NCBI GenBank assembly: GCA_963989385.1
Contig: OZ022511.1
Location: 24,608,503 to 24,672,502, forward strand
Length of the DNA stretch: 64,000 nt
Origin: Ctena decussata
Taxonomy: Eukaryota > Mollusca > Bivalvia > Lucinida > Lucinidae
Direction of reading: 5' to 3'
The notes under the pieces were generated by a model. That model saw only the letters and a list, made by a program, of their open reading frames with translations. It ran no database searches and was not told the origin of the DNA. The position numbers and the translations under genes are program-made. This document shows positions 12,575 to 39,165 of this stretch, in pieces; position 1 is the first letter of the stretch; each line of letters starts with the position of its first letter.

Positions 12575-12618
12575 CCTGGTCTCTAAAGAGGTAAAATTCA
12601 GACCGGTGTACATCAACA

Positions 12619-13892
12619 CTAGAAACGGAACCAAAACGAAACGAAACGAAACGAAACAAAACGCAACGAAACGCAACGCAACGAAACGAAACGGAATAGA
12701 AATCAGATGAAGCAAAATAAATCTGAAATTTAACAGCACAGCATACATTTATATTTAAAATCCCTATATACAATTGCAGCAACAGTTACCCCCGACTATC
12801 GCCTTTTAAGTACAATTTCCAGCTTTAATAAAGTAGAACATAAGTCTCCTGTAACGTTGTGACTTTGTCAGCACAGCAAGGGCAACTGAAGGCCAAAGAC
12901 TCTGTCAGTGGTGCCCAAGCAACCTTGCAAGGTCATGGGATACACTAGACTACTCACTAGACTAGATTGAGTGTTAGTCTGTTGGCAAATAAAAGCAGGA
13001 CGGATACAGGACGCGGTAAAGTGGTGGAGAGGAGACGAGGGGTGGAACCACTTTTAAACCTCAATAAATATTGTTTTAAGAAAAAAATGCGGGTTGAAGA
13101 AAAGATAAATTTCAAAACGTCACACTCTGCCTCTTGCCTGCACATCAAAGGTTCATTTGGTGGTTTGTAAGAGGACATGGAATTTGGGTACGGGTTTATT
13201 TTGCAGTGGGATCCCGAACATGACAACAGTGAAACCAAGGGAAGGATAACTTAAGTTTCTGGGAACCAGGGAACATTTTCTGAAATCATTATAGTTCGGG
13301 AAATGCAAAGACATTTTTTTCTGCGAAGCATAAAAATAATTGTTGGGGACCGAGGCAAGAACACTATTTCAGGAACCTGGGTCATATGTATGGAGCTGGT
13401 AGCCCGAAAAATGTCGAAAAGCTCACACGACGCTCCACAACAAAAAAAGTAAAAATAAATATTAATTATCTTTAAATAACAATCAAAAACTATAAAGATA
13501 ATAAAGAAAATGCCCAGACCAAAACACCCTAAGACCGAATGAGACCCCAAAATCGTATGTCAGTTTATCAAATTAAAAAATTCAGCCAAGTATCTGTTTA
13601 AAAGCTAATGTATTTGATCTAACAAATACCAAGTAACTTGGTAACTTCATATAGCAATGTATAGGGATAAACATGGTGCTTTTTTAGTCTTCCTTTTGCA
13701 TTAATATGTGGTGCTGTTCTATTGTGATACTTTCATGGTATTTTTCAGATTTTGCTTCATTTCGTTTTATTTCTATTTCGTTTCGTTGCGTTTCGTTTCG
13801 TTCCGTTGCGTTTTGTTTCGTTGCGTTCCGTTTCGTTTCGTTGCGTTTCGTTTCGTTTCGTTTTGGTTCCGTTTCTAGTTTTATAGGGACCC
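12619..13892. mobile_element. fold-back element with microsatellite arms and 10-bp target duplication
   Basis: The left arm (12619-12735) starts CTAGAAACGGAACC, continues as a run of AACGA/AACGC pentamers and ends with AGCAAAATAAATCTGAAA. The right arm (about 13754-13878) is its reverse complement, ending GGTTCCGTTTCTAG. The 10-bp sequence TACATCAACA flanks both sides (12609-12618 and 13893-13902), and the interrupted DNA is the ~70-bp satellite, which continues in register on the right. The right end carries 14 extra bases (TTTTATAGGGACCC) with no partner on the left. The ~1 kb interior shows no transposase. Duplication length fits Mutator-like elements, but that is only a length argument. 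Confidence 0.8.
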
Positions 13893-14285: not shown

Positions 14286-16110
14286 TCTAGATATCATAAA
14301 ATCGAAGAGGTGATATCACAAAATATGTACAATTGAGTGATATCACAAAATCCGATTAGTGATACCACAAAATAGAATAAGTGGTATAACAAATTTGATT
14401 TTGTGATATAACGCGATCACAGGTGACAGCTATTTTGTGATATCACTAATTCGATAATCTATTTAGTGATGTCAAATTCGATTTTGTAATATCACTTAAT
14501 CGATTTTGTGATATCACTATATCTTATCGAGTTTGTGATCAGTAATTCGTTCCTGACTAGTGATATCAAGAAATCGATATTACAAAATCGATTTAGCGAT
14601 TTCACTAAATTGATTTAGTAAACATAACACATACTTTATTACACTCAGGTCAGTCAGTGATAGCACATAATAGTTAGTGAAATGAGAAAATAATGTGATA
14701 TCACATACTTGAAATAGTGGTATCACAAAATCGACATTGTGATATCACAAAATCGATTTTGTTGAACGAAAAAGTGATATCACAAACTCGGATTAATGAT
14801 ATCGCTAAATCAAATAAGTGATATCACAAAAATTCGATTTTGTGATATCGAAAAATCATATCCACTTTACTTTTTGATATATCCAAAACTGTTAAGTGAT
14901 ATCTAGGGCAAACCATTTTACTAATTATAATGCATAGTAGATATCTTATAAGGTAAATTAGGTATCTAATATGCCAATTAAGATATATAATATAACATAT
15001 AAGATATTTTATATAACATATAAGAAATCTTATATCCTCTATAAGATACTTGATACAGGATATATCTTATATAGGAAATATGAGATAAGGCATATCCTAT
15101 ATAAGATATCTTATATATTAGATATCTTATATAGCATGTAAGATATCTGATATCTTATATAATTAAATAAGATATCTCCTATCCTATATAGGATATCTTA
15201 TATCTGATATCGATACCTGTTTTACGAAATAGGATATCCTATATGTTATATAAGATAATTTAAATGCTATTTCAGATATCTTATATATTATGTTGTGTCT
15301 TATGGAAAAGTCAAATAAGATATCTTATAAACCGATACTAGGTCTATTATAAAATATATAAGATATCGTATATGGCATATATGAAATCTTCCGTAGAATA
15401 TAATATATCTTTTATGGAATATGAGATATCTTATTCAACTTTACGTATAAGATATCTGTCATAATATATAAGATATCTGATATATATGATATCTTATATG
15501 CGATTAAGACATCTTATATATAATATTTGATATCTGATACAGTTTATGAGATAGTTGATATATTATATTAAATAAGATATCCATATCCTATATCAGATAT
15601 CTTGTATCCTATATCAGATATCTTATATAAGATATCAGATATCTGATATAAGATATGAAATATCTGTTATGTTATATGAGATATCTTATATGTTATATTA
15701 CATATCTAATATATTATATAGATTTATTTATTATATAAGATATCCTTTATAATAAATTATATAAGTTTATTGATTATATAAAATGCTTATATATAAGATA
15801 TCATATACAATAAATTAGATATCTTACATATTACATTAGATATCTGATATAATAAAAGTGCTATCTATGTTCCATAATAAATAGTACATTGGCTTGCCAT
15901 AGATACCACTAAATCGACTTTGTGATATAGCAGATTTCATTTTGTAATATTTCAAATTCATTCGTATTCAATGATATCACTTTGTGGTTTACTTAATCGA
16001 TTAAGTGATATTACATAATAATTGATGATAACAATTATATGATATCACATATTTGAAATAGAGATATCACAAAATCGATATATTGATATCGCAACCTGTT
16101 CAAAGTCGTC
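14286..16110. repeat. GATATC-centred palindromic satellite, two nested blocks
   Basis: Outer blocks (about 14286-14910 and 15890-16110) are strings of GTGATATCAC alternating with AAAATCGATTT, each itself a palindrome, at roughly 20-22-bp spacing. The inner block (about 14930-15880) is strings of AAGATATCTTATAT and TATATAAGATATC-like words with irregular spacing. GATATC and its near variants recur dozens of times. No coding sequence. The whole 1.8 kb can form countless alternative hairpins. Confidence 0.9.
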
Positions 16111-18197: not shown

Positions 18198-18487
18198 TGA
18201 GCCGCAACACGATAAAACCAACAAAGTGGTTATGTGCCCAGCAAAGACTCAGATCTGCCTGGGCATCCGCCCAGTCTGATCAGAGTCTTCGCTCTCCACA
18301 TGAAGCTAGATAAGATCCTTAGCTACCCTTTAAGTGCATAGCAAAGAGTCTGATCAGACTGAGATCCTTAGCTACCCTTTAAGTGCATAGCAAAGAGTCT
18401 GATCAGACTGAGCAGATGCCGAGGCTGTTCTGAGTTTTCACCGGGCGCACATGCCACTTTGTTGGTTTTGTCGTGTCGCGGCTCATT
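18198..18487. mobile_element. MITE-1 copy with internal 51-bp tandem duplication
   Basis: Ends TGAGCCGCAACACG and CGTGTCGCGGCTCA. It is longer than its relatives because a segment of about 49-51 bp (GATCCTTAGCTACCCTTTAA...CAAAGAGTCTGATCAGACTGA) is present twice in tandem between about 18312 and 18412. Its right end lies only about 42 bp before the splice acceptor of the Methyltransf_FA exon, so it sits where the branch point is expected. Confidence 0.85.
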
Positions 18488-19030: not shown

Positions 19031-19604
19031 ACTCACATCGGACCATGAACTAGAGAGCCTTCATTCAGCGACTTTCGATTGTTTAGGGTTCATACCTGTT
19101 CACACCATCTTAGGGTGACTGCTGGTCAGGGAAAAGTAAGGGAAGTCGGGAAAGTGGTCAGGGGTCAGGGAAATTTTAAAAGGCCTTTTTAAAAACAGGA
19201 AATAGCCGGTATAATTGCTGATCAAAGAGATGAATAATAAGGAGAAAACGACGTTAAAAGATGGCAAGATTTGAGCTTATTACGTTTCCTCGAGAAAATG
19301 ATACTCAGATTTTGACGGATTTGAATGTAACAAGTGAATTTGTGACCCATCGATGTATTTCATATGAATTGAAATTTAATTGATTTGCAGCTTGTACTTG
19401 GTATTATTATTATGATCCAGCTATAATACAGAGGGTAGTATCGTCCAAAAAAAGGTCATTGAAGAGTTCATATTTTCAACCATGTCATTTAGAATAGCAG
19501 AGAACCTACATGTAGTATGGAACCTTGCGGAACACCGGCTTCTAGTCTGTGACAAAGGACACAAGAAAAAGTGGAGAAATCTGATGAGTCCCCATTTTTC
19601 CATA
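19031..19604. other. unclassified; short GGTCAGGG-rich patch
   Basis: Around 19125-19180 the sequence repeats GTCAGGGAAA-type words that are complementary in style to the TTCCCTGA words in the element at 54902-55823, so this may be a diverged fragment of that family. No gene supported. Confidence 0.4.
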
Positions 19605-19842
19605 TGAGCCGCGACACGAGAAAACAAAAAATGTGGTTGTGCGCCCAGCGCAGACTCAGATCAGCCTGGGCATCCGCCCAGTCCGATCAGAGTCTTCGCT
19701 GTACGCATGAAGGTAGCTAAGACCCTTAGCTTCCCTTTAAACGCTTAATGGAGAGTCTGATCAGACTTGGCAGATGCCCAGGCTGATTTGAGTCTGCGCT
19801 GGGTACACGACCACTTTGTTGGTTTTGTCGTGTCGCGGCTCA
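19605..19842. mobile_element. MITE-1 copy
   Basis: Ends TGAGCCGCGACACGAGAAAA and GTTTTGTCGTGTCGCGGCTCA, with the usual GACTCAGATCAGCCTGGGCA sub-terminal arm. Confidence 0.9.
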
Positions 19843-19845
19843 TTT

Positions 19846-20085
19846 GGTTGGCTTTGCGTGAAAAGGTACATTTCAACATGTGCGAAATAGCAAAATGCAG
19901 ACAAGCCTGCCCATAACGCAGTCTGATCAGACTCTTTCCCTTTTCGCATATAAAATCTGTAATCCCTAAGGAATCTACAAAACAAACATTTTGAAGACTC
20001 TGATCAGTCTGAGCGAATGTGCAATCTGGTTTGTGCATTTACACCACTTAAATTGCCTAAGGTCCTTTGCTCACGCGACACCAGT
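19846..20085. mobile_element. diverged relative of MITE-1
   Basis: It directly abuts the MITE-1 copy. It keeps the general plan (CAGACAAGCCTGCC, GTCTGATCAGACTCTT, a central unpaired part, GACTCTGATCAGTCTGAGC) but has different ends, TTGGTTGGCTTTGCGTG and CTCACGCGACACCA. A piece of the same right end lies at 16140-16225. Confidence 0.6.
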
Positions 20086-22121: not shown

Positions 22122-22140
22122 TATATATCGAGGAAGCAGA

Positions 22141-22379
22141 TGAGCCGCGACACGAGAAAACCAACAATGTGGTTGTGCGCCCAGCGCAGACTCAGATCAG
22201 CCTGGGCATCCGCCAAGTTTGATCAGACTCTTCATTAAGTGCTCAAAGGGTAGCTAAGGGTCTAAGCTACCTCCATGCGGACAGCGAAGACTCTGATTAG
22301 ACTGGGCGGATGCCCAGGCTGATCTGAGTCTGCGCTGGGCGCACAACCACATTGTTGGGTTTCTCGTGTCGCGGCTCAT
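22141..22379. mobile_element. MITE-1 copy, well preserved
   Basis: Ends TGAGCCGCGACACGAGAAAA and the complement CTCGTGTCGCGGCTCA. The arms GACTCAGATCAGCCTGGGCA and TGCCCAGGCTGATCTGAGTC pair perfectly over at least 20 bases. It lies about 210 bp before the start codon of the PAN-domain gene. Confidence 0.9.
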
Positions 22380-22591
22380 ATGTAATTAGTACTGTTTGTC
22401 CTTAACATAAGACTAATATTCAATTACTTCAAGTTCCAAATGGACAATACAACTTTTATTTAACTTCTACTATTTGACTTCAAATTATTTGTTTTGTATT
22501 GATTAAGAGAATTCAGTGCTGTTCGGTATTCTTAAAAGAGCATTCTGCCTTCGAGTAGACAAACTTGCAGTGGAGAGAATTTCATGACAAT

Positions 22592-25265: not shown

Positions 25266-26648
25266 AATCACGCGAAAAGACGAAAAGACGAAAAGACGCC
25301 ATGCGAAAAGACGAAAAGACGCCAGGCGAAAAGACGAAAAGACGAAATAACGCCAAGCGAAAAGACGAAACCCGCCACGCGAAAAGACGAGATTTCAGCG
25401 CGAAAAGGCGAAAAAACGCCATGCGAAAAGACGCCATTTGAAACTCTTAATTTGTCGTCTTTTCGCGTGGCGTCTTTTCGTCTTTTCGCCTGGCGTCTTT
25501 TCGTCTTTTCGCATGGCGTTATTTCGTCTTTTCGCATGGCGTTATTTCGTCTTTTCGCGTGGCGTTTTTTCGTCTTTTCGTCTTTTCGCGTGGCGTTATT
25601 TCGTCTTTTCGCGTGGCGTTATTTCGTCTTTTCGCATGGCGTCTTTTCGTCTTTTCGGCGCGAAAAGACGAAAAGACGCAATGCGAAAAGACGAAAAGAC
25701 GAAAAAACGCCACGCGAAAAGACGATATAACGCCATGCGAAAAGACGAGATTTCAGCGCGAAAAGGCGAAAAAACGCCATGCGAAAAGACGCCATTTGAA
25801 ACTCTTAATTTGTCGTCTTTTCGCGTGGCGTCTTTTCGTCTTTTCGCCTGGCGTCTTTTCGTCTTTTCGCATGGCGTTATTTCGTCTTTTCGCATGGCGT
25901 TATTTCGTCTTTTCGTCTTTTCGCGTGGCGTTATTTCGTCTTTTCGTCTTTTCGCGTGGCGTTATTTCGTCTTTTCGCATGGCGTCTTTTCGTCTTTTCG
26001 GCGCGAAAAGACGAAAAGACGCAATGCGAAAAGACGAAAAGACGAAAAAACGCCCCGCGAAAAGACGAAATAACGCCATGCGAAAAGACGAGATTTCAGC
26101 GCGAAAAGGCGAAAAAACGCCATGCGAAAAGACGCCATTTGAAACTCTTAATTTGTCGTCTTTTCGCGTGGCGTCTTTGCGTCTTTTCGCCTGGCGTCTT
26201 TTCGTCTTTTCGCATGGCGTTATTTCGTCTTTTCGCATGGCGTTATTTCGTCTTTTCGCGTGGCGTTTTTTCGTCTTTTCGTCTTTTCGCGTGGCGTTAT
26301 TTCGTCTTTTCGTCTTTTCGCGTGGCGTTATTTCGTCTTTTCGCATGGCGTCTTTTCGTCTTTTCGGCACGCGAAAAGACGAAATAACGCCATGCGAAAA
26401 GACGAAAAGACGCCAGGCGAAAAGACGAAAAAACGCCACGCGAAAAGACGACAATTTAAGAGTTTCAAATGGCGTCTTTTCGCATGGCGTTTTTTGGTCT
26501 TTTCGCGCTGAAATTTCGTCTTTTCGCGTGGCGGATTTCGTCTTTTCGCCTGGCGTTATTTCGTCTTTTCGTCTTCGTCTTTTCGCATGGCGTCTTTTCG
26601 TCTTTTCGCGTGGCGTCTTTTCGCGGCGAAAAGACGAAAAGACGAAAT
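25266..26648. repeat. higher-order satellite of alternating inverted 23-bp arrays
   Basis: The basic unit is 8+8+7 bases: GTCTTTTC or GTTATTTC, GTCTTTTC, then GC[A/G/C]TGGC. Runs of it alternate strand: reverse 25266-25435, forward 25454-25657, reverse 25660-25793, forward 25812-26001, reverse 26003-26136, forward 26155-26366, reverse 26369-26452, forward 26471-26624, then a short reverse piece. Two junction types alternate: a direct GGCGCG-type fold and an 18-bp spacer ATTTGAAACTCTTAATTT (25436, 25794, 26137; inverted at 26453). Higher-order period is about 343-358 bp. The 23-bp period has no stop codon in several frames, so long open frames up to 433 codons appear on both strands; none is credible as protein. 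Confidence 0.95.
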
Positions 26649-27046
26649 GGCACAAACCAGCCACCATAGAGAAAAGAGTTTTGATATTTCTGTATAGTTT
26701 CGAAAATACCCGCCCATTGAACAAGGCAGAAAGATTCAACATAATCAATGTTGTTGTTGTTTTTTTTTTTTTTTTTTTTTTTCAAAGTGAAAAGGGCTTC
26801 AGTTTGCGAGTGAAATCATTGTTTATCCCAGCGATCAACGCGTATAAATACATTACGTAAATAATTCGCCGATGGGTGACTACACGTTGGCTTCTTTAAA
26901 CAAGGGCTTCGCAAGCGGCGCATAATACGCCCGTTTCAATGTATTAAAGGACTTACAGAATGACGAGAGTGTTTACAAAAGGATAGACAGGCAGATAAAC
27001 AGGGGCAACCGCTCTATAATTAACTAGAACTGTCAGCGAATCCGAC

Positions 27047-30433: not shown

Positions 30434-33400
30434 GTTTAAACATATTTTATTCATAATTTCTTTCACATGCAACATAAGATATACACAAAAAATAGTTACT
30501 GGGATTGGAATGAAAGCAAAATGCTTATAGGATTCCTCTCCCTCTAGCAAGCTAAATTGTACAAAATATAGGCAGGCCACATGTTTTGTAAATTATTATG
30601 TACAGTTGTAATTTGATTACATAGTTCAAGGAATACAAAGTAAATTCAATAGAATATAGAAACTAGGTCCTATCATACAAAAAAAAAAATGAAAGAAAAA
30701 GAATGCATTAGATGGAGCACTGATGATACAGAAAGGAAAAACAAAAAGGCAAATCGGCTGGGCACAGATCAGAGGATTGGATTTAAAAAACCTACATGCC
30801 TTACATGCCTACTTCCAAGATACTTTCTTGTGGACAAGATAATGAAAGGTCAACAAAACATCTAATACTCAACACCGTCGTCATCTCATCTGGACAAACA
30901 GCCCTCCTACTGTCTCTGAAGAGTTGTAATAATATAAAAGTGTAAATTATAAATTAAATACGGAGACAATAAGTGACTGATAATCAAGAAGAAAGGACAA
31001 GACGACAAAAGCATTATTGACGGAAAAAGGATATACATATATATACTAAAATCTTCTGGTATCTCTGATATACTTATGTACAGTTACAAATATTTGTGTA
31101 TTAACATCCACTGACAATGAACTATCCCCAAACAACAACACATCTAATGATACGTTACAGAGATGAGAAAGGCTACGTAACATTTCGTTTCTTTGCCGAT
31201 GATAGTAATGACAGTATAGGAAGTAATGTTCAGAGTTTTCAATATCACCGCATCTACACAGGGGTGAATCGGTCAAGTTTTTTAGATAAATGTCATAATT
31301 TAAAGAACTGCACTTAGTGCGAAGGCGCGTATGCAGGATTTGTGAACGTCTGTCTCCAGAGTAGTAATATTTAGGTATTCTATCATTTGCCTGATTTAGC
31401 TGAAACTTAAAAGATGAAACAGATACAGAATTTCTTTGTTCTTCGGGAAGGCTGTTCCAGTCTCGGATAGAGGAGGGTAGAAAGGAATTGAAATACTGAT
31501 TTGTGCGTGCATTAATAGTACGAATGTCATTTGCGTTTCTTAGATTATAAAAAGACGTTTCACTAACAGTTGCAGGTATAAGAGATGATAGATAAAAGGG
31601 AGTCAGGTTATTTACCATTTTATAGAAGAGAATTAATTTTTGCTTTTTCCGTCTCGAGTCTAAAGTTTCCCATCCAATTTCCCCATAAAGATTTTCGATA
31701 GACACTAGTTTAGTTGTTCCAGTTGCAATTCTAGCTGCTTCTTTTTGAATTTTTTCAATGTCGTCTTTTTCATACTGTGTGCAGTTGTCCCAAATTTCAT
31801 TGCCATATTCCAAAATAGGTCTAATAAAAACTGTATAAATTATTTCTAAAGATCTGCGGTCTAGCTGGAATTTAAGTTTACGCATAATATTAATTCTTAT
31901 CCAAGCTTTTTCTTTAATGTAGTTTATGTGTTTATGCCAAGAGCCATCATTACTAAAGAATATGCCAAGATGTTTATGCGTATCAACTTCTGAAATTTGC
32001 TGATTTAACATGTATAAAGGAGGATGTACTGTCTGTAAGAGTTTTCTAGATATCAAAAGACTTTCTGTTTTCACAGGGTTAAAAGTTACCAACCACATTT
32101 TGGCCTATTTAGTAATTTTTTCCAGATCAGAATTGAGGATTTGTGCAGCAGAGATGGGATTTTCAACAACTATAGATAAACTCGTATCATCTGCAAAGAG
32201 TCTGATGTTGGAACCTATATCTGTTACTATATCGTTTATGTATAGGAGAAAGAGAAGTGGGCCAAGAATAGATCCCTGTGGTACCCCCGCTTGTATAAAT
32301 TTCCAGTTAGAACGAGAACCTGGAAGAATAACTCTCTGTCTTCTGTTAGAAAGATAACTACTAATCCAAGATAACAAACTACCAGAGACACCTGCTGCTC
32401 TAAGCTTGCAGAGAAGACCCTGATGCCAGACACGATCAAAAGCCTTGCTGACATCACAGAAGACAACTCTTACTTCCTTTCCTGAGTCCAGAGCTTGACA
32501 AAAGGAATTGTAAAGAAATGTAAGTTGATTTGTTGTGGAATCTCTAGGAATGAAACCAGATTGTAAAGGAGTAAGAATGCGGTTGTCGTGAAAGTGGTTG
32601 TAAAGATGTTTAAAGACAACACGTTCAAAAACTTTCTCCAAGCAACTCAATAGAGAAATGGGTCGATAATTAGAAACAGAAGTGGAATCTCCACCTTTAA
32701 AAATAGGACATACCAGCGCATCTTTCCAAATATCAGGAAATATTCCAAACCGTAAAGATTGGTTTATCAAAGAACATAGGGGATAGGATAGTTCATGTGC
32801 CAACTCTCGAAGGATGCGATTGTTAATATCATCTGATCCTACAGCTTTACCGAGGGGAAGGGACTTCATAACAGATTCTATCTCTAAGGGAGAAATAATA
32901 AGAGTTGAAAGAATATCCTCAACGTAGACCGCAATATCAGGAACTATAGTGTTACGATCATCGAGTAGTGTTTGGTCTCTGAAAAAATCGTTCAGTATGT
33001 TTGCTTTGTCAATTTCGTCAGAGTAGATATAGCCGTCTTTTTCCAAAGTCGGCACAGAAGACTTAGTGGATGGAGAGATAAAGGCTTTAAGAGTGGTCCA
33101 CCAATCTTTAGTAGATAAAGTTTCTGACTGAAGTTTGTTAGAAAGTTGGTTAATGTAATCCTGTTTGGATTGACGGATAGCTGCTACAACACTGTTTCTA
33201 AGTTTCTTAAATTTAATCCATAGTCGTGTAGTATTAATTCGTTTTGCTTTTTTGTACATTCTTTTACGTCTCCTAATTTGCTTTCTGATGGCTGTTGTTA
33301 TCCAGGGATGATCGGAGGGTCGGATTCTAACATTTTTATTTGGTACACATTCTGCTGTCAGTAAGTTTATACGGTCGGTGATATTCTTTGCGTAAATATT

Positions 33401-33704
33401 AGTATCTGGGTCTGATAATGTAACCCAGTCAGTATTTGCAGCTTTAGTTCTTAAGAGGTCATAGTTGCCTCGGTCATAACTCCAGATTCTGCGGGTAAAC
33501 GATTTTCTTGCATGCTTGGAGAATTTTAAAATGCCATAAATAGGACAGTGGTAACGAACGTCTTGGTGAAGAAAAGGATCAGCTACACCACTGGATAACA
33601 GGTTATTTCTATCACTAGTGAGAATAATGTCAATAAGGGAAGAAGAGTGTTCAGTATAATGGGTGGGTTCTGATACAGTTTGGTATAAAGAAAACTGTTC
33701 ACTA
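30434..33704 (-). mobile_element. 5'-truncated non-LTR retrotransposon (LINE, jockey/CR1-like)
   Basis: A 3.27-kb insertion flanked by a perfect 12-bp target site duplication, GTTATCTAGTTA (30422-30433 and 33705-33716). The uninterrupted family A copy reads the complementary ..AACTAGATAATTG.. here, so the empty site can be reconstructed. The 5' end (right) is cut inside the endonuclease domain; the 3' end (left) has about 610 bp of untranslated DNA, with AATAAA near the end (complement of 30447-30452) and no poly-A tail. The lack of poly-A and the protein features suggest a jockey/CR1-group element; assignment to clade is inference. Confidence 0.92.
31046..33704 (-). pseudogene. LINE ORF2 remnant: endonuclease C-terminus, reverse transcriptase, thumb and CCHC-like tail
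   Basis: One frame stays open from the truncated 5' end at 33704 to the stop at 31046, about 886 codons, except for one in-frame TAG at 32105-32107. From the 5' side: APE-type endonuclease C-terminus (SSSLIDIILTSDRNN, RYHCPIYG); a linker with SDHPWITTAIRKQIRRRKRM; the reverse transcriptase core (SNYRPISLLSCLEKVFE, FCDVSKAFDRVWHQGL, AGVPQGSILGPLLFLLYIND, and LFADDTSL with the catalytic FADD); then, after the stop, the thumb region (RPILEYGNEIWD, KIQKEAARIATG) and a C-terminal motif, LCRCGDIENSEHYFLYC, typical of jockey/CR1-group ORF2. The rest shows no frameshift, so the insertion appears young. Without its 5' half it cannot act by itself. Confidence 0.92.
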
Positions 33705-34006
33705 GTTATCTAGTTATGGCGCGCACAAGACTTGCAGGGAAAAAATAAATCAAAGGGGCATAACTTGGAAACTAAGGAAGGGGGAGCAACCATTCTTGTA
33801 CGCGACACGTTCCCCCAACCTTATACAAATGCCTACCAAATTTCATGAAGATATCCCAAATGGTTACTGAGTTATGGCGCGCACAAGAATGTTTACGGAC
33901 AGACGGACGGACGGACAACGCCACGACATAATACGTCCGTTTTTTCAAAACGGGCATATAAAAAGAATCAAAAGCGAAGATTTGCTGTGCAATGTTATGC
34001 ACAAAT

Positions 34007-34855
34007 ATACACTTGCCACTGACTTCCCGTATAGTAGGTGAACCCATTAGAGCAACTAGCTTCATACACCGATGAAGGACAATTGACCATGCGACGTTGT
34101 CGTCAAGCGACGACGTATGTCGTATGTAAACAAACGTCTTGATTGGTTCTTGTAACGTTCGAATGACGCCACGTCAGGGCGACGGCTGTTTAATGTCGTG
34201 GCCGAACACGTCGTTACTAAGTTTTCTTCGACTCATATTTTGCCTTTTCTACACCAAATTACCAGGAAAACGGCACAGAGAGATTCACAAATAAAGTGTA
34301 AATATAAGAATAAAAATTTGATTTTTCAGCGTTCATCGTGTGATGAAGCCAGTGGGCGGAGCTAAAATTCCATGAAGCGCGAACACGATGAACGCTGAAA
34401 AATCAAATTTTAATTAAGAATTGAAATTTGATTTTTCAGCAAATTTAAATTAAGAATTGAAATTTGATTTTTCAGCGTTCATCGAAGCGCTTCTTGTAGA
34501 ATTTTAGCAACGACCACTGGCTTCTTCACACGATGAACGCTGAAAAATCAAATTTTTATTCTTATATTTACACTTTATTTTTAGACCCTTCCTCTGCTGT
34601 TTTTGTGGAAATATAATGTAGAATATGCAAATTATGCGTCGAAGAAAAGACAGAAACGACCAATTCGGCCATTACATTAAACGGCCGTCGCCATAACGTG
34701 GCGTCAGTCGAACGTTACGTGGACCAATCAAGACGTTTGTTTACCTTAGACGTCGCTAGACGACAACGTCACATGATCAACTTTCGTTCATCGGCGTATG
34801 AAGCCAGTTGCTCTATACGGTTTACCCATGGGAAGTCAATGGCAAGTGTAAATAT
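34007..34855. mobile_element. fold-back element, ~390-bp inverted arms
   Basis: The left arm begins TATACACTTGCCACTGACTT and the right arm ends GGAAGTCAATGGCAAGTGTA. The arms are complementary with scattered mismatches over nearly their full length, including ACAAACGTCTTGATTGGT, GACGCCACGT and TAAGAATAAAAATTTGATTT. The centre (about 34380-34490) carries extra copies of TGATTTTTCAGC in both orientations. A single-arm relative lies at 49546-50020. No protein. Confidence 0.85.
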
Positions 34856-36489: not shown

Positions 36490-37195
36490 GTGGCTTTTGT
36501 CACCAAGGGAAGCACTTTTGTCACCAAGTGAAGCACTTTTGTTACCATGGGAAGCACTTATGTTATCAAGTAAAGCACTTTTGTCACCAAGTGAAGCACT
36601 TTTGTTACCATGGGAAGCACTTATGTCACCCAGTGAAGCACTTTTGTTACCATGGGAAGCACTTATGTCACCAAGTGAAGCAGTTTTGTCACCAAGGGGA
36701 GCACTTATGACACCAAGGGAAGCACTTTTGTCACAAGGGAAGCACTTTTGTCACCAAGGGAAGGACTTATGACATCAAGGGAAGCACATTTGTCACCAAG
36801 TGAAGCACTTTTGTCACAAGACAAGCACTTATGACACCAAGGAAAGTACTTTTGTCACAAGGGAATCACTTTTTCACCAAGGGAAGCACCTACGACACCA
36901 AGGGAAGCACTTTTGTCACAAGGGAAGCACTTTTGTCACAAGGGAAGCACTTATGAAACCAAGGGAAGCACTTTTGTCACAAGGGAAGCACTTTTGTCAC
37001 AAGGGAAGCACTTATGACACCAAGGGAAGCACTTTTGTCACCAAGTGAAGCACTTTTTCACCAAGGGAAGCACCTACGACACCAAGGGAAGCACTTTTGT
37101 CACAAGGGAAGCACTTTTGTCACAAGGGAAGCACTTATGAAACCAAGGGAAGCACTTTTGTCACAAGGGAAGCACTTTTGTCACCAAGTGAAGCA
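36490..37195. repeat. 20-21-bp minisatellite, about 34 units
   Basis: The unit is AAGCACTTTTGTCACCAAGGG (21 bp) with a 20-bp variant CACAAGGG. Variants AAGCACTTATGACACCAAGG and GTTACCATGGG occur in clusters, giving a higher-order pattern. A block of about 190 bp at 36860-37010 is repeated at 37048-37195. Because 21 is a multiple of three, a 91-codon frame with a Ser-Pro-x-Glu-Ala-Leu-Leu heptad stays open at 36497-36772; it breaks where 20-bp units begin. Confidence 0.95.
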
Positions 37196-38399: not shown

Positions 38400-39165
38400 G
38401 TCACTCTTTGTGGCCAATAAAGGTGAATGGATACACTTTCAGGGGAAGCAACTCTACATTTTTCTTTTTGCCTTCTTCTCAATGGGGGTCATCTCTTAAA
38501 GTAAAGAATTTGCTCCTATTCTCAATGGGGTCATCTCTTAAAGGAAAGAATTTGCTCCTAATCTCAATGGGGATCATCTCTTAAAGTAAAGAATTTGTTC
38601 CTATTCTCCATGGGGGTTATCTCTTAAAGTAAAGAATTTGCTCCTATTCTCAATGGGGGTCATCTCTTAAAGGAAAGAATTTGCTCCTAATCTCAGTGGG
38701 GGTCATCTCTTAAAGGAAAGAATTTGTTCCTATTCTCAATGGGGGTCATCTCTTAAAGTAAAGAATTTGCTCCTATTCTCAATGGGGGTCATCTCTTGAA
38801 GGAAAGAATTTGCTCCTATTCTCAATGGGGTTCATCTCTTAAAGTAAAGAATTTACTCCTATTCTCAATGGGGGTCATCTCTTGAAGGAAAGAATTTGCT
38901 CCTAATCTCAATGGGGGTCATCTCTTAAAGGAAAGAATTTGTTCCTATTCTCAATGGGGGTCATCTCTTAAAGTAAAGAATTTGCTCCTATTCTCAATGG
39001 GGGTCATCTTTTAAAGGAAAGAATTTGCTCCTATTCTCAGTGGGGGTCATCTCTTAAAGGAAAGAATTTGCTCCATATGAGCAAATTCTTTTAGTTAAGG
39101 GCAGACCCCATCTTGGAAGGGCTTCTTTGTATTGGAAAGCAAACAGGAAGTCATAAAAGTTGCTT
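38400..39165. mobile_element. MITE-2 with a central ~43-bp tandem expansion (about 14 units)
   Basis: The left side, GGATACACTTTCAGGGGAAG, and right side, GTTGCTTCCCTTCGTAAAAT, are the ends of a palindromic MITE also seen at 40190-40790. In this copy CTCAATGGGGGTCATCTCTT followed by AAAG[T/G]AAAGAATTTGCTCCTATT repeats head to tail. AAAGTA and AAAGGA variants alternate irregularly, pointing to repeated unequal exchange. The last unit turns into the inverse arm at GCTCCATATGAGCAAATTC. Confidence 0.9.

What the first reader, a model, noticed from the sequence alone, without database searches (positions are those of the whole stretch)
25266..26648. Satellite whose 23-bp unit flips strand at least eight times in 1.4 kb
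The unit GTCTTTTC-GTCTTTTC-GC[A/G/C]TGGC (8+8+7 bases) runs in alternating forward and reverse arms of about 85-210 bp. Two distinct junctions alternate, one a direct GGCGCG fold and one with an 18-bp spacer ATTTGAAACTCTTAATTT, giving a higher-order period of about 350 bp. Ordinary satellites are head to tail; a regular alternation needs either amplification of an inverted dimer or a fold-back intermediate. Transcripts from either strand would fold into long double-stranded RNA. This is the most unusual structure in the window.
Basis: seen in the sequence. Interest (0 to 1): 0.75.

Follow-up and report, generated by a model that had tools for sequence, protein, structure and literature searches.

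The report
Foldback transposon posing as flipping satellite
What looked like a satellite DNA that keeps reversing direction is most likely the inside of a small, widely copied jumping element whose arms are built of 23-base repeats facing each other, expanded here to four units.

Summary
The strand-flipping array is real: all 36 window matches to the 23-mer lie in 25267-26643, in nine arms with eight flips. It is probably not a free satellite. A meaningless ORF from the array, used as protein query, found 388 proteins at E<=10 (120 listed, all E<=7e-10); a second ORF added 14. Of these 134 translated relatives, 64 show one conserved terminus, against 0 of 120 controls. The same terminus, TATGGTGGCTGGTTTGTGCCATTTCG, lies intact just right of the array at 26643-26668; the left one is missing. 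In two-ended ORFs, back-translation supports 6-bp target-site duplications: 6 of 11 independent copies against 4 of 110 mispaired ends. TATGG..CCATA ends plus 6-bp duplications match the published IS3EU signature. Of 38 left ends, 36 switch strand within 30 residues; of 12 two-ended copies, 7 enclose one spacer, 2 two, 3 none. The window copy has four spacers, the last inverted. Best reading: a non-autonomous foldback/MITE-like transposon, IS3EU/GingerRoot type by its ends, enlarged by unequal crossing-over. The host genome search did not complete and no transposase was found, so the class is inferred.

The parts
25269..25658 (+). Unit 1: R-type arm (CGAAAAGA blocks), spacer, F-type arm (TCTTTTCG blocks). 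Left terminus absent: repeat starts abruptly after ...GAACTAAAT
   Evidence: no convincing second copy of the 26-bp terminus in the window (next best hit has 7 errors in 26)
25659..26001 (+). Unit 2, direct copy of unit 1 (98.2% identical over 332 aligned bases)
26002..26367 (+). Unit 3, direct copy (99.1% to unit 2, 97.2% to unit 1)
26368..26642 (-). Unit 4, inverted copy; with unit 1 it makes the whole array an imperfect palindrome
   Evidence: (I1, 96% over 211 nt)
25436..25453 (+). Spacer 1 ATTTGAAACTCTTAATTT
25794..25811 (+). Spacer 2
26137..26154 (+). Spacer 3
26452..26471 (-). Spacer 4, inverted, one mismatch in the 20-mer
25657..25662 (.). Flip junction GGCGCG between units 1 and 2; the same junction lies at 26000-26005 between units 2 and 3; variants GGCACGCG near 26366 and CGCGGCG near 26622
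26643..26668 (-). Intact terminus (terminal inverted repeat) TATGGTGGCTGGTTTGTGCCATTTCG
   Evidence: same terminus seen as translated peptides in 64 of 134 relatives
26669..26674 (.). GAGAAA: where the right copy of a 6-bp target-site duplication would lie; no left partner because the left terminus is lost
   Evidence: inference

Best explanation
The array is the body of a non-autonomous DNA transposon of foldback/MITE type. Its usual form is: 26-bp terminus (TATGG...), a short stretch of repeats, a flip, an arm of 8+8+7-bp repeats, one spacer of about 18 bp, the opposite arm, a second flip, and the inverted terminus. A transposase supplied in trans, most likely of the IS3EU/GingerRoot class, would cut at TATGG..CCATA and make 6-bp target-site duplications. 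The window copy has lost its left end and has grown to four units. The short repeats inside the terminus and the long arm beyond the spacer face the same way, so unequal crossing-over between them duplicates the segment flip-arm-spacer-arm, which is the 343-bp unit. Shown: array, units, right terminus, recurrent anatomy in translated relatives, a statistical 6-bp duplication signal. Inferred: the class of transposase, the crossing-over, and the origin of the inverted fourth unit (a two-spacer ancestor or a template switch).
For: 388 proteins at E<=10 with an array ORF as query (the 120 listed have E<=7e-10) and 19 with a second ORF (14 new, E from 4e-23 to 3.7). Of the 120 listed hits, 105 contain at least one strand flip (runs of 15 residues or more), against 0 of 120 reverse-transcriptase controls and 28 of 120 residue-shuffled hits. 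A terminus is recognised in 64 of 134 (31 left, 44 right, 11 both) and in 0 of 120 controls. The terminus fits in all three frames: the residue before WW is L, V or I (which have codons ending TA) in 8 of 8, and the residue after NGTNQPP is Y in 9 of 9. 36 of 38 left-terminus ORFs turn to the K/R/D/E/N/T-rich (opposite-strand) peptide within 30 residues. Of 12 two-ended ORFs, 7 enclose one spacer and 2 enclose two in opposite orientation. With the boundary TATGG..CCATA, 6 of 11 independent copies allow a 6-bp duplication against 4 of 110 mispaired ends; 0 of 20,000 permutations reach that at length 6, and 24 of 20,000 over lengths 4-11. Published IS3EU: TA..TA termini, usually 6-bp TSDs (PMC10045372 passages); a set of fungal IS3EU families ends in TAYGG..CCRTA with 6-bp TSDs (PMC12730594 passages). 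The nine arms of the window copy are what four spacers predict (2n+2 = 10) minus the lost left end (my count).
Against: The window copy has no left terminus and no checkable duplication. 5 of 11 independent two-ended relatives (P0133, P0174, P0176, P0179, P0241) do not allow a 6-bp duplication; in P0133 and P0174 the spacer lies outside the stretch between the ends, so they are not clean elements; of the six that fit, P0251 allows 36 different 6-mers and is weak. The boundary and length were picked after a scan of three boundaries and ten lengths, and the permutation corrects only for length. Duplications come from back-translated peptides, not DNA. 70 of 134 relatives show no terminus and 56 of 134 no recognisable spacer; fourteen share one other flank and match no terminus pattern. 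ORFs can stop short, so this is not decisive. No transposase or autonomous partner was found; the host genome search did not complete. The relatives' species are not given. The query contains peptides of both strands, which favours hits with flips.
Confidence: 0.8

Rival explanations
1. A true satellite formed by amplification of an inverted dimer; the terminus is just flanking DNA.
For: Near-identical 343-bp direct units; TRF array; 70 of 134 relatives show no terminus.
Against: The same terminus borders the repeats in different flanks in 64 of 134 relatives, on both sides in 12 ORFs (two of them not clean, two the same insertion), with 6-bp duplications allowed in 6 of 11 independent copies; in the window the array is only 1.4 kb.
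Confidence: 0.08
2. A foldback/MITE element, but mobilised by another transposase class with 6-bp duplications (for example the hAT6 families mentioned in PMC12730594) rather than IS3EU/GingerRoot.
For: No transposase seen; the class rests on ends and TSD length only.
Against: TATGG..CCATA matches TAYGG..CCRTA reported for fungal IS3EU. Other lengths: 8 bp 0 of 10, 9 bp 0 of 10, 10 bp 1 of 10 copies, so Mutator or 8-bp hAT classes are unlikely.
Confidence: 0.15
3. Assembly artefact: inversions or extra units created by the assembler.
For: Not testable without reads.
Against: Units carry private substitutions and length differences (94.5-99.1% identity), and flips with related spacers recur in relatives on many other contigs. 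The number of units could still be wrong.
Confidence: 0.05
4. The hairpin is maintained for a function: a source of double-stranded RNA or small RNAs.
For: Very strong predicted folding of both strands.
Against: Any foldback element folds like this; transcript and small-RNA data were not available, and I ran no promoter scan.
Confidence: 0.05

Closest known systems
IS3EU / GingerRoot DNA transposons (PMC10045372, PMC12730594: passages read)
   Same: TA..TA ends, specifically TATGG..CCATA within the TAYGG..CCRTA reported for a set of fungal families; 6-bp target-site duplications allowed in 6 of 11 testable copies.
   Different: No transposase seen; those fungal families have TIRs over 30 bp, here 26 bp before the repeats begin; the body is tandem 23-bp repeats in inverted arms, which the passages read do not describe for IS3EU.
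Foldback elements, e.g. Tetris of Drosophila virilis (PMC4079207: abstract, sections 10, 17, 19) and Tm1 of root-knot nematodes (PMC3169594: passages)
   Same: Long inverted repeats containing tandem repeats of variable number; Tetris repeats also form satellite-like arrays, and unequal crossing-over is suggested there for copy-number change.
   Different: Tetris has 8-10 bp and Tm1 9-bp TSDs, both placed with Mutator; here 6 bp. Repeat unit 23 bp, not about 220 or 14 bp; here the central spacer is duplicated too.
Macro-dyad satellites of Tribolium (PMC13081366: passages)
   Same: Satellite monomers change orientation at conserved inversion sites.
   Different: Those symmetries span a few kilobases to 75 kb in multi-megabase regions, and the paper says they are documented only in Tribolium; this is 1.4 kb with a transposon end.
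Oyster satellites linked to mobile elements (PMC8268682: passages)
   Same: Short scattered arrays carried by mobile elements; two of 52 C. gigas satellites (CgiSat35, CgiSat47) are labelled DNA/IS3EU in its table.
   Different: Monomers of 690 and 129 bp; the association studied there is with Helitrons; sequences not compared.

Membership tests
IS3EU/GingerRoot | TA..TA (TAYGG..CCRTA) termini | tested here: met
   Window right end TATGGTGG; residues fit TA before TGGTGG in 8 of 8 and after CCACCA in 9 of 9 frame-informative relatives. Left end of the window copy absent
IS3EU/GingerRoot | 6-bp target-site duplication | tested here: met
   Family level only, from peptides: 6 of 11 independent copies against 4 of 110 mispaired; 5 of 11 do not fit; the window copy cannot be tested
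IS3EU/GingerRoot | IS3EU-type DDE transposase in the autonomous partner | not testable with these tools
   Host genome search did not complete (eleven tries)
Foldback element | Long inverted repeats made of short tandem repeats | tested here: met
Foldback element | Dispersed copies with common ends | tested here: met
   64 of 134 relatives, at peptide level
Mutator-type foldback (Tetris, Tm1) | 8-10 bp target-site duplication | tested here: not met
   0 of 10, 0 of 10 and 1 of 10 copies at 8, 9, 10 bp
Helitron/Helentron | No target-site duplication, no terminal inverted repeat (recalled) | tested here: not met
   Inverted termini and 6-bp signal
Classical satellite DNA | Long head-to-tail arrays | tested here: not met
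   1.4 kb, four units, eight flips in the window; genome-wide not testable

The most novel reading that the evidence does not exclude
Foldback architecture has arisen in the IS3EU class, outside Mutator, with the 23-bp repeats serving as iterated transposase-binding sites; the element grows by unequal crossing-over between its terminal stub and its inner arm, so that multi-unit copies like this one are a direct step from a mobile element to a strand-alternating satellite.
Probability: 0.3. Interest if true: 0.55.

Novelty: new variant of a known kind. Interest (0 to 1): 0.4.

Why it matters
It turns an odd satellite into a testable transposon family with exact ends, and offers a simple route from a palindromic mobile element to arrays that alternate in strand. 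If the IS3EU assignment holds, it extends foldback structure to a class where, in the passages and listings I saw, it was not described.

Tried and rejected
Nucleotide look-ups for relatives failed. The 23-mer pattern gave 0 in viral contigs and 0 in genome contigs. A looser pattern gave two single matches, in contigs titled Pelagibacterium and Tepidicaulis, taken as chance and not examined further. The spacer gave one match in a viral contig; the 361 bases around it that I read show no array. The terminus gave 0 in viral contigs. Rfam at gathering threshold: 0 matches in the window. Paper searches for the repeat strings gave two papers with one 13-mer each, judged unrelated from the listing only; for the terminus, 0 papers. 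That library holds only open-licence PMC papers. Repbase and Dfam are not available here, so the family may already be catalogued there.

Rejected: a 2-bp TA duplication as in mariner. It is trivially compatible with every copy (10 of 10 own and 90 of 90 mispaired) and so carries no information; the 6-bp signal outside TATGG does. ORFs through the array (211, 433 and 282 aa) were rejected as genes: the repeat lacks stops in these frames, and the ORFs run across the flips.

Weak points kept: the flip-calling model was trained on the window's own arms. The spacer threshold was set from arm-only and reverse-transcriptase peptides, and some spacer query peptides were taken from the hits themselves. 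The switch near the terminus is judged by residue composition. One search counted 31 of 32 left ends, a list from which I had left out P0174, which does not switch; the recount with all 31 pattern matches plus seven variants found by eye gives 36 of 38 (P0174 and P0251 fail). One search used 10 two-ended copies (7 of 10 at 6 bp against 5 of 90); one search added P0133 and P0174, both negative, and dropped P0229 because it is the same insertion as P0218. P0183 has both ends but no right flank and was not testable. P0176 and P0210 were found by eye. P0251, P0252 and P0254 have E of 0.17 to 3.7 but carry the terminus.

Full report
Observation. The strand-flipping array is real and far beyond chance. 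The 23-mer has 36 matches in the window with up to three mismatches, all in 25267-26643 and on both strands, with a mean of 0.00 in shuffles. The 20-base spacer motif has four matches, three on + and the last on -. Splitting the sequence into 8-, 8- and 7-base blocks gives nine arms and eight flips.

Anatomy. Each of units 1-3 is arm, spacer, opposite arm; neighbouring units meet at a flip without spacer. Units 2 and 3 are 99.1% identical, unit 1 is 98.2% and 97.2% identical to them, unit 4 is 94.5-96.8% identical to the others, gaps not counted. Both strands are predicted to fold very strongly (10 shuffles each).

Relatives. No nucleotide relative was found in the collections that could be scanned, and the host genome search did not complete (eleven tries). 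The array lacks stop codons in several frames, so I used an ORF through it as a protein query. That found 388 proteins at E<=10; the 120 listed have E<=7e-10. A longer ORF gave 19, of which 14 were new, some of them weak. I examined these 134. They are almost surely not proteins but predicted ORFs in copies of the same repeat. Of the 120, 105 show at least one strand flip, against 0 of 120 reverse-transcriptase control proteins and 28 of 120 residue-shuffled hits. Since the query contains both strands' peptides, some enrichment for flips is expected.

Ends. Many of these ORFs begin with peptides such as MVAGLCHF, YGGWFVPF or WWLVCAIS, or end with KWHKPATI, EMAQTSHH or NGTNQPPY. These are the three frames of one terminus, TATGGTGGCTGGTTTGTGCCATTTCG, and of its reverse complement. 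Fixed patterns for it match 64 of 134 relatives (31 left, 44 right, 11 both) and 0 of 120 controls. The window carries it once, intact, at 26643-26668 on the minus strand; its left partner is missing. In 8 of 8 and 9 of 9 frame-informative cases the residue next to the terminus fits TA. Against this, 70 of 134 show no terminus, and fourteen share another flank (MFPSF...).

Target-site duplication. For ORFs holding both ends I asked which duplication lengths the flanking residues allow. Only 6 bp directly outside TATGG..CCATA stands out: 6 of 11 independent copies against 4 of 110 mispaired left and right flanks; 0 of 20,000 permutations at that length and 24 of 20,000 over lengths 4-11. The choice among three boundaries is not corrected for. 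Five copies do not fit; two of them (P0133, P0174) are not clean elements. In five of the six fitting copies a single 6-mer is allowed; P0251 allows 36, so it is weak.

Usual form. 36 of 38 left-terminus ORFs change to the opposite-strand type of peptide within 30 residues of the end. Of 12 two-ended ORFs, 7 enclose one spacer, 2 enclose two in opposite orientation (P0176, P0189) and 3 enclose none (P0133, P0174, P0251); P0218 and P0229 are one insertion. Over all 134 ORFs, 73 have one recognisable spacer, 5 have two and 56 none; P0149 has two in the same orientation. So single-spacer elements are usual, and both direct and inverted two-unit forms exist. The window copy, with three direct and one inverted unit, combines both. 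With n spacers the plan predicts 2n+2 arms; four spacers give ten, and the window has nine because the left end is lost.

Class. Published IS3EU families always have TA..TA termini and usually 6-bp duplications; GingerRoot is similar (PMC10045372, passages). A set of fungal IS3EU families ends with TAYGG..CCRTA and makes 6-bp duplications (PMC12730594, passages). TATGG..CCATA fits. No transposase was seen, so the class is an inference from ends. Foldback elements with tandem repeats in their arms are known, and Tetris repeats also make satellite-like arrays (PMC4079207), but Tetris has 8-10 bp duplications. Strand-alternating satellites are known from Tribolium at a far larger scale (PMC13081366, passages).

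Mechanism. The short repeats between terminus and flip face the same way as the long arm beyond the spacer. Unequal crossing-over between them, in sister or homologous copies, adds exactly one flip-arm-spacer-arm unit, which gives the observed 343-bp period and direct orientation. This is inference. The inverted fourth unit needs another step, such as a two-spacer ancestor like P0176 or a fold-back template switch. dsRNA or small-RNA effects are possible but untested.

Host. The window is animal-like: RVT_1 reverse transcriptase, PAN and Methyltransf_FA domains (10 ORFs scanned). Of the 120 listed relatives of the reverse transcriptase, five are labelled Candidatus Thiodiazotropha MAGs; these bacteria are, as I recall, symbionts of lucinid clams, so host contamination from a bivalve is a plausible reading. 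Species not determined.

On recount I corrected the spacer count of two-ended copies (7 of 12, not 9 of 12: two spacers lay outside the ends) and the switch count (36 of 38, with P0174 put back in).

Noticed in passing
12619-13878: A second foldback-like structure: (GAAAC)n and (GTTTC)n arms about 1.1 kb apart (12615-12696 against 13801-13882, 90% complementary) ending in CTAGAAACGGAACC..GGTTCCGTTTCTAG.
   Followed up: partly
19598-19849 and 22134-22385: Two copies of a palindromic MITE-like element of about 240 bp (90% complementary to each other), with ends GAGCCGCGACACGAGAAAAC; a related stretch at 18198-18360.
   Followed up: partly
34119-34751: Nested inverted repeat (173 nt at 79%, inner arms 82 nt at 95%), with TTTGATTTTTCAGCG repeats.
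   Followed up: no
31046-33709 (-): Broken reverse transcriptase, probably of a non-LTR element, in two ORFs; RVT_1 E=3e-28. Listed relatives up to 86% identical, five of 120 named as Thiodiazotropha MAGs.
   Followed up: partly
14947-15866: AT-rich array of GATATC/ATATAAGATATCTTATAT palindromic units with inverted arms.
   Followed up: no
36494-37195 and 38476-39074: Plain head-to-tail arrays: 21-bp unit x34 and 43-bp unit x14.
   Followed up: no
P0124, P0129, P0132, P0134, P0137 and others: Fourteen of 134 hits share the same long flank (MFPSFRNNDLVSYSAHEF...), suggesting one array copy that was itself duplicated or sits in a larger repeat.
   Followed up: no
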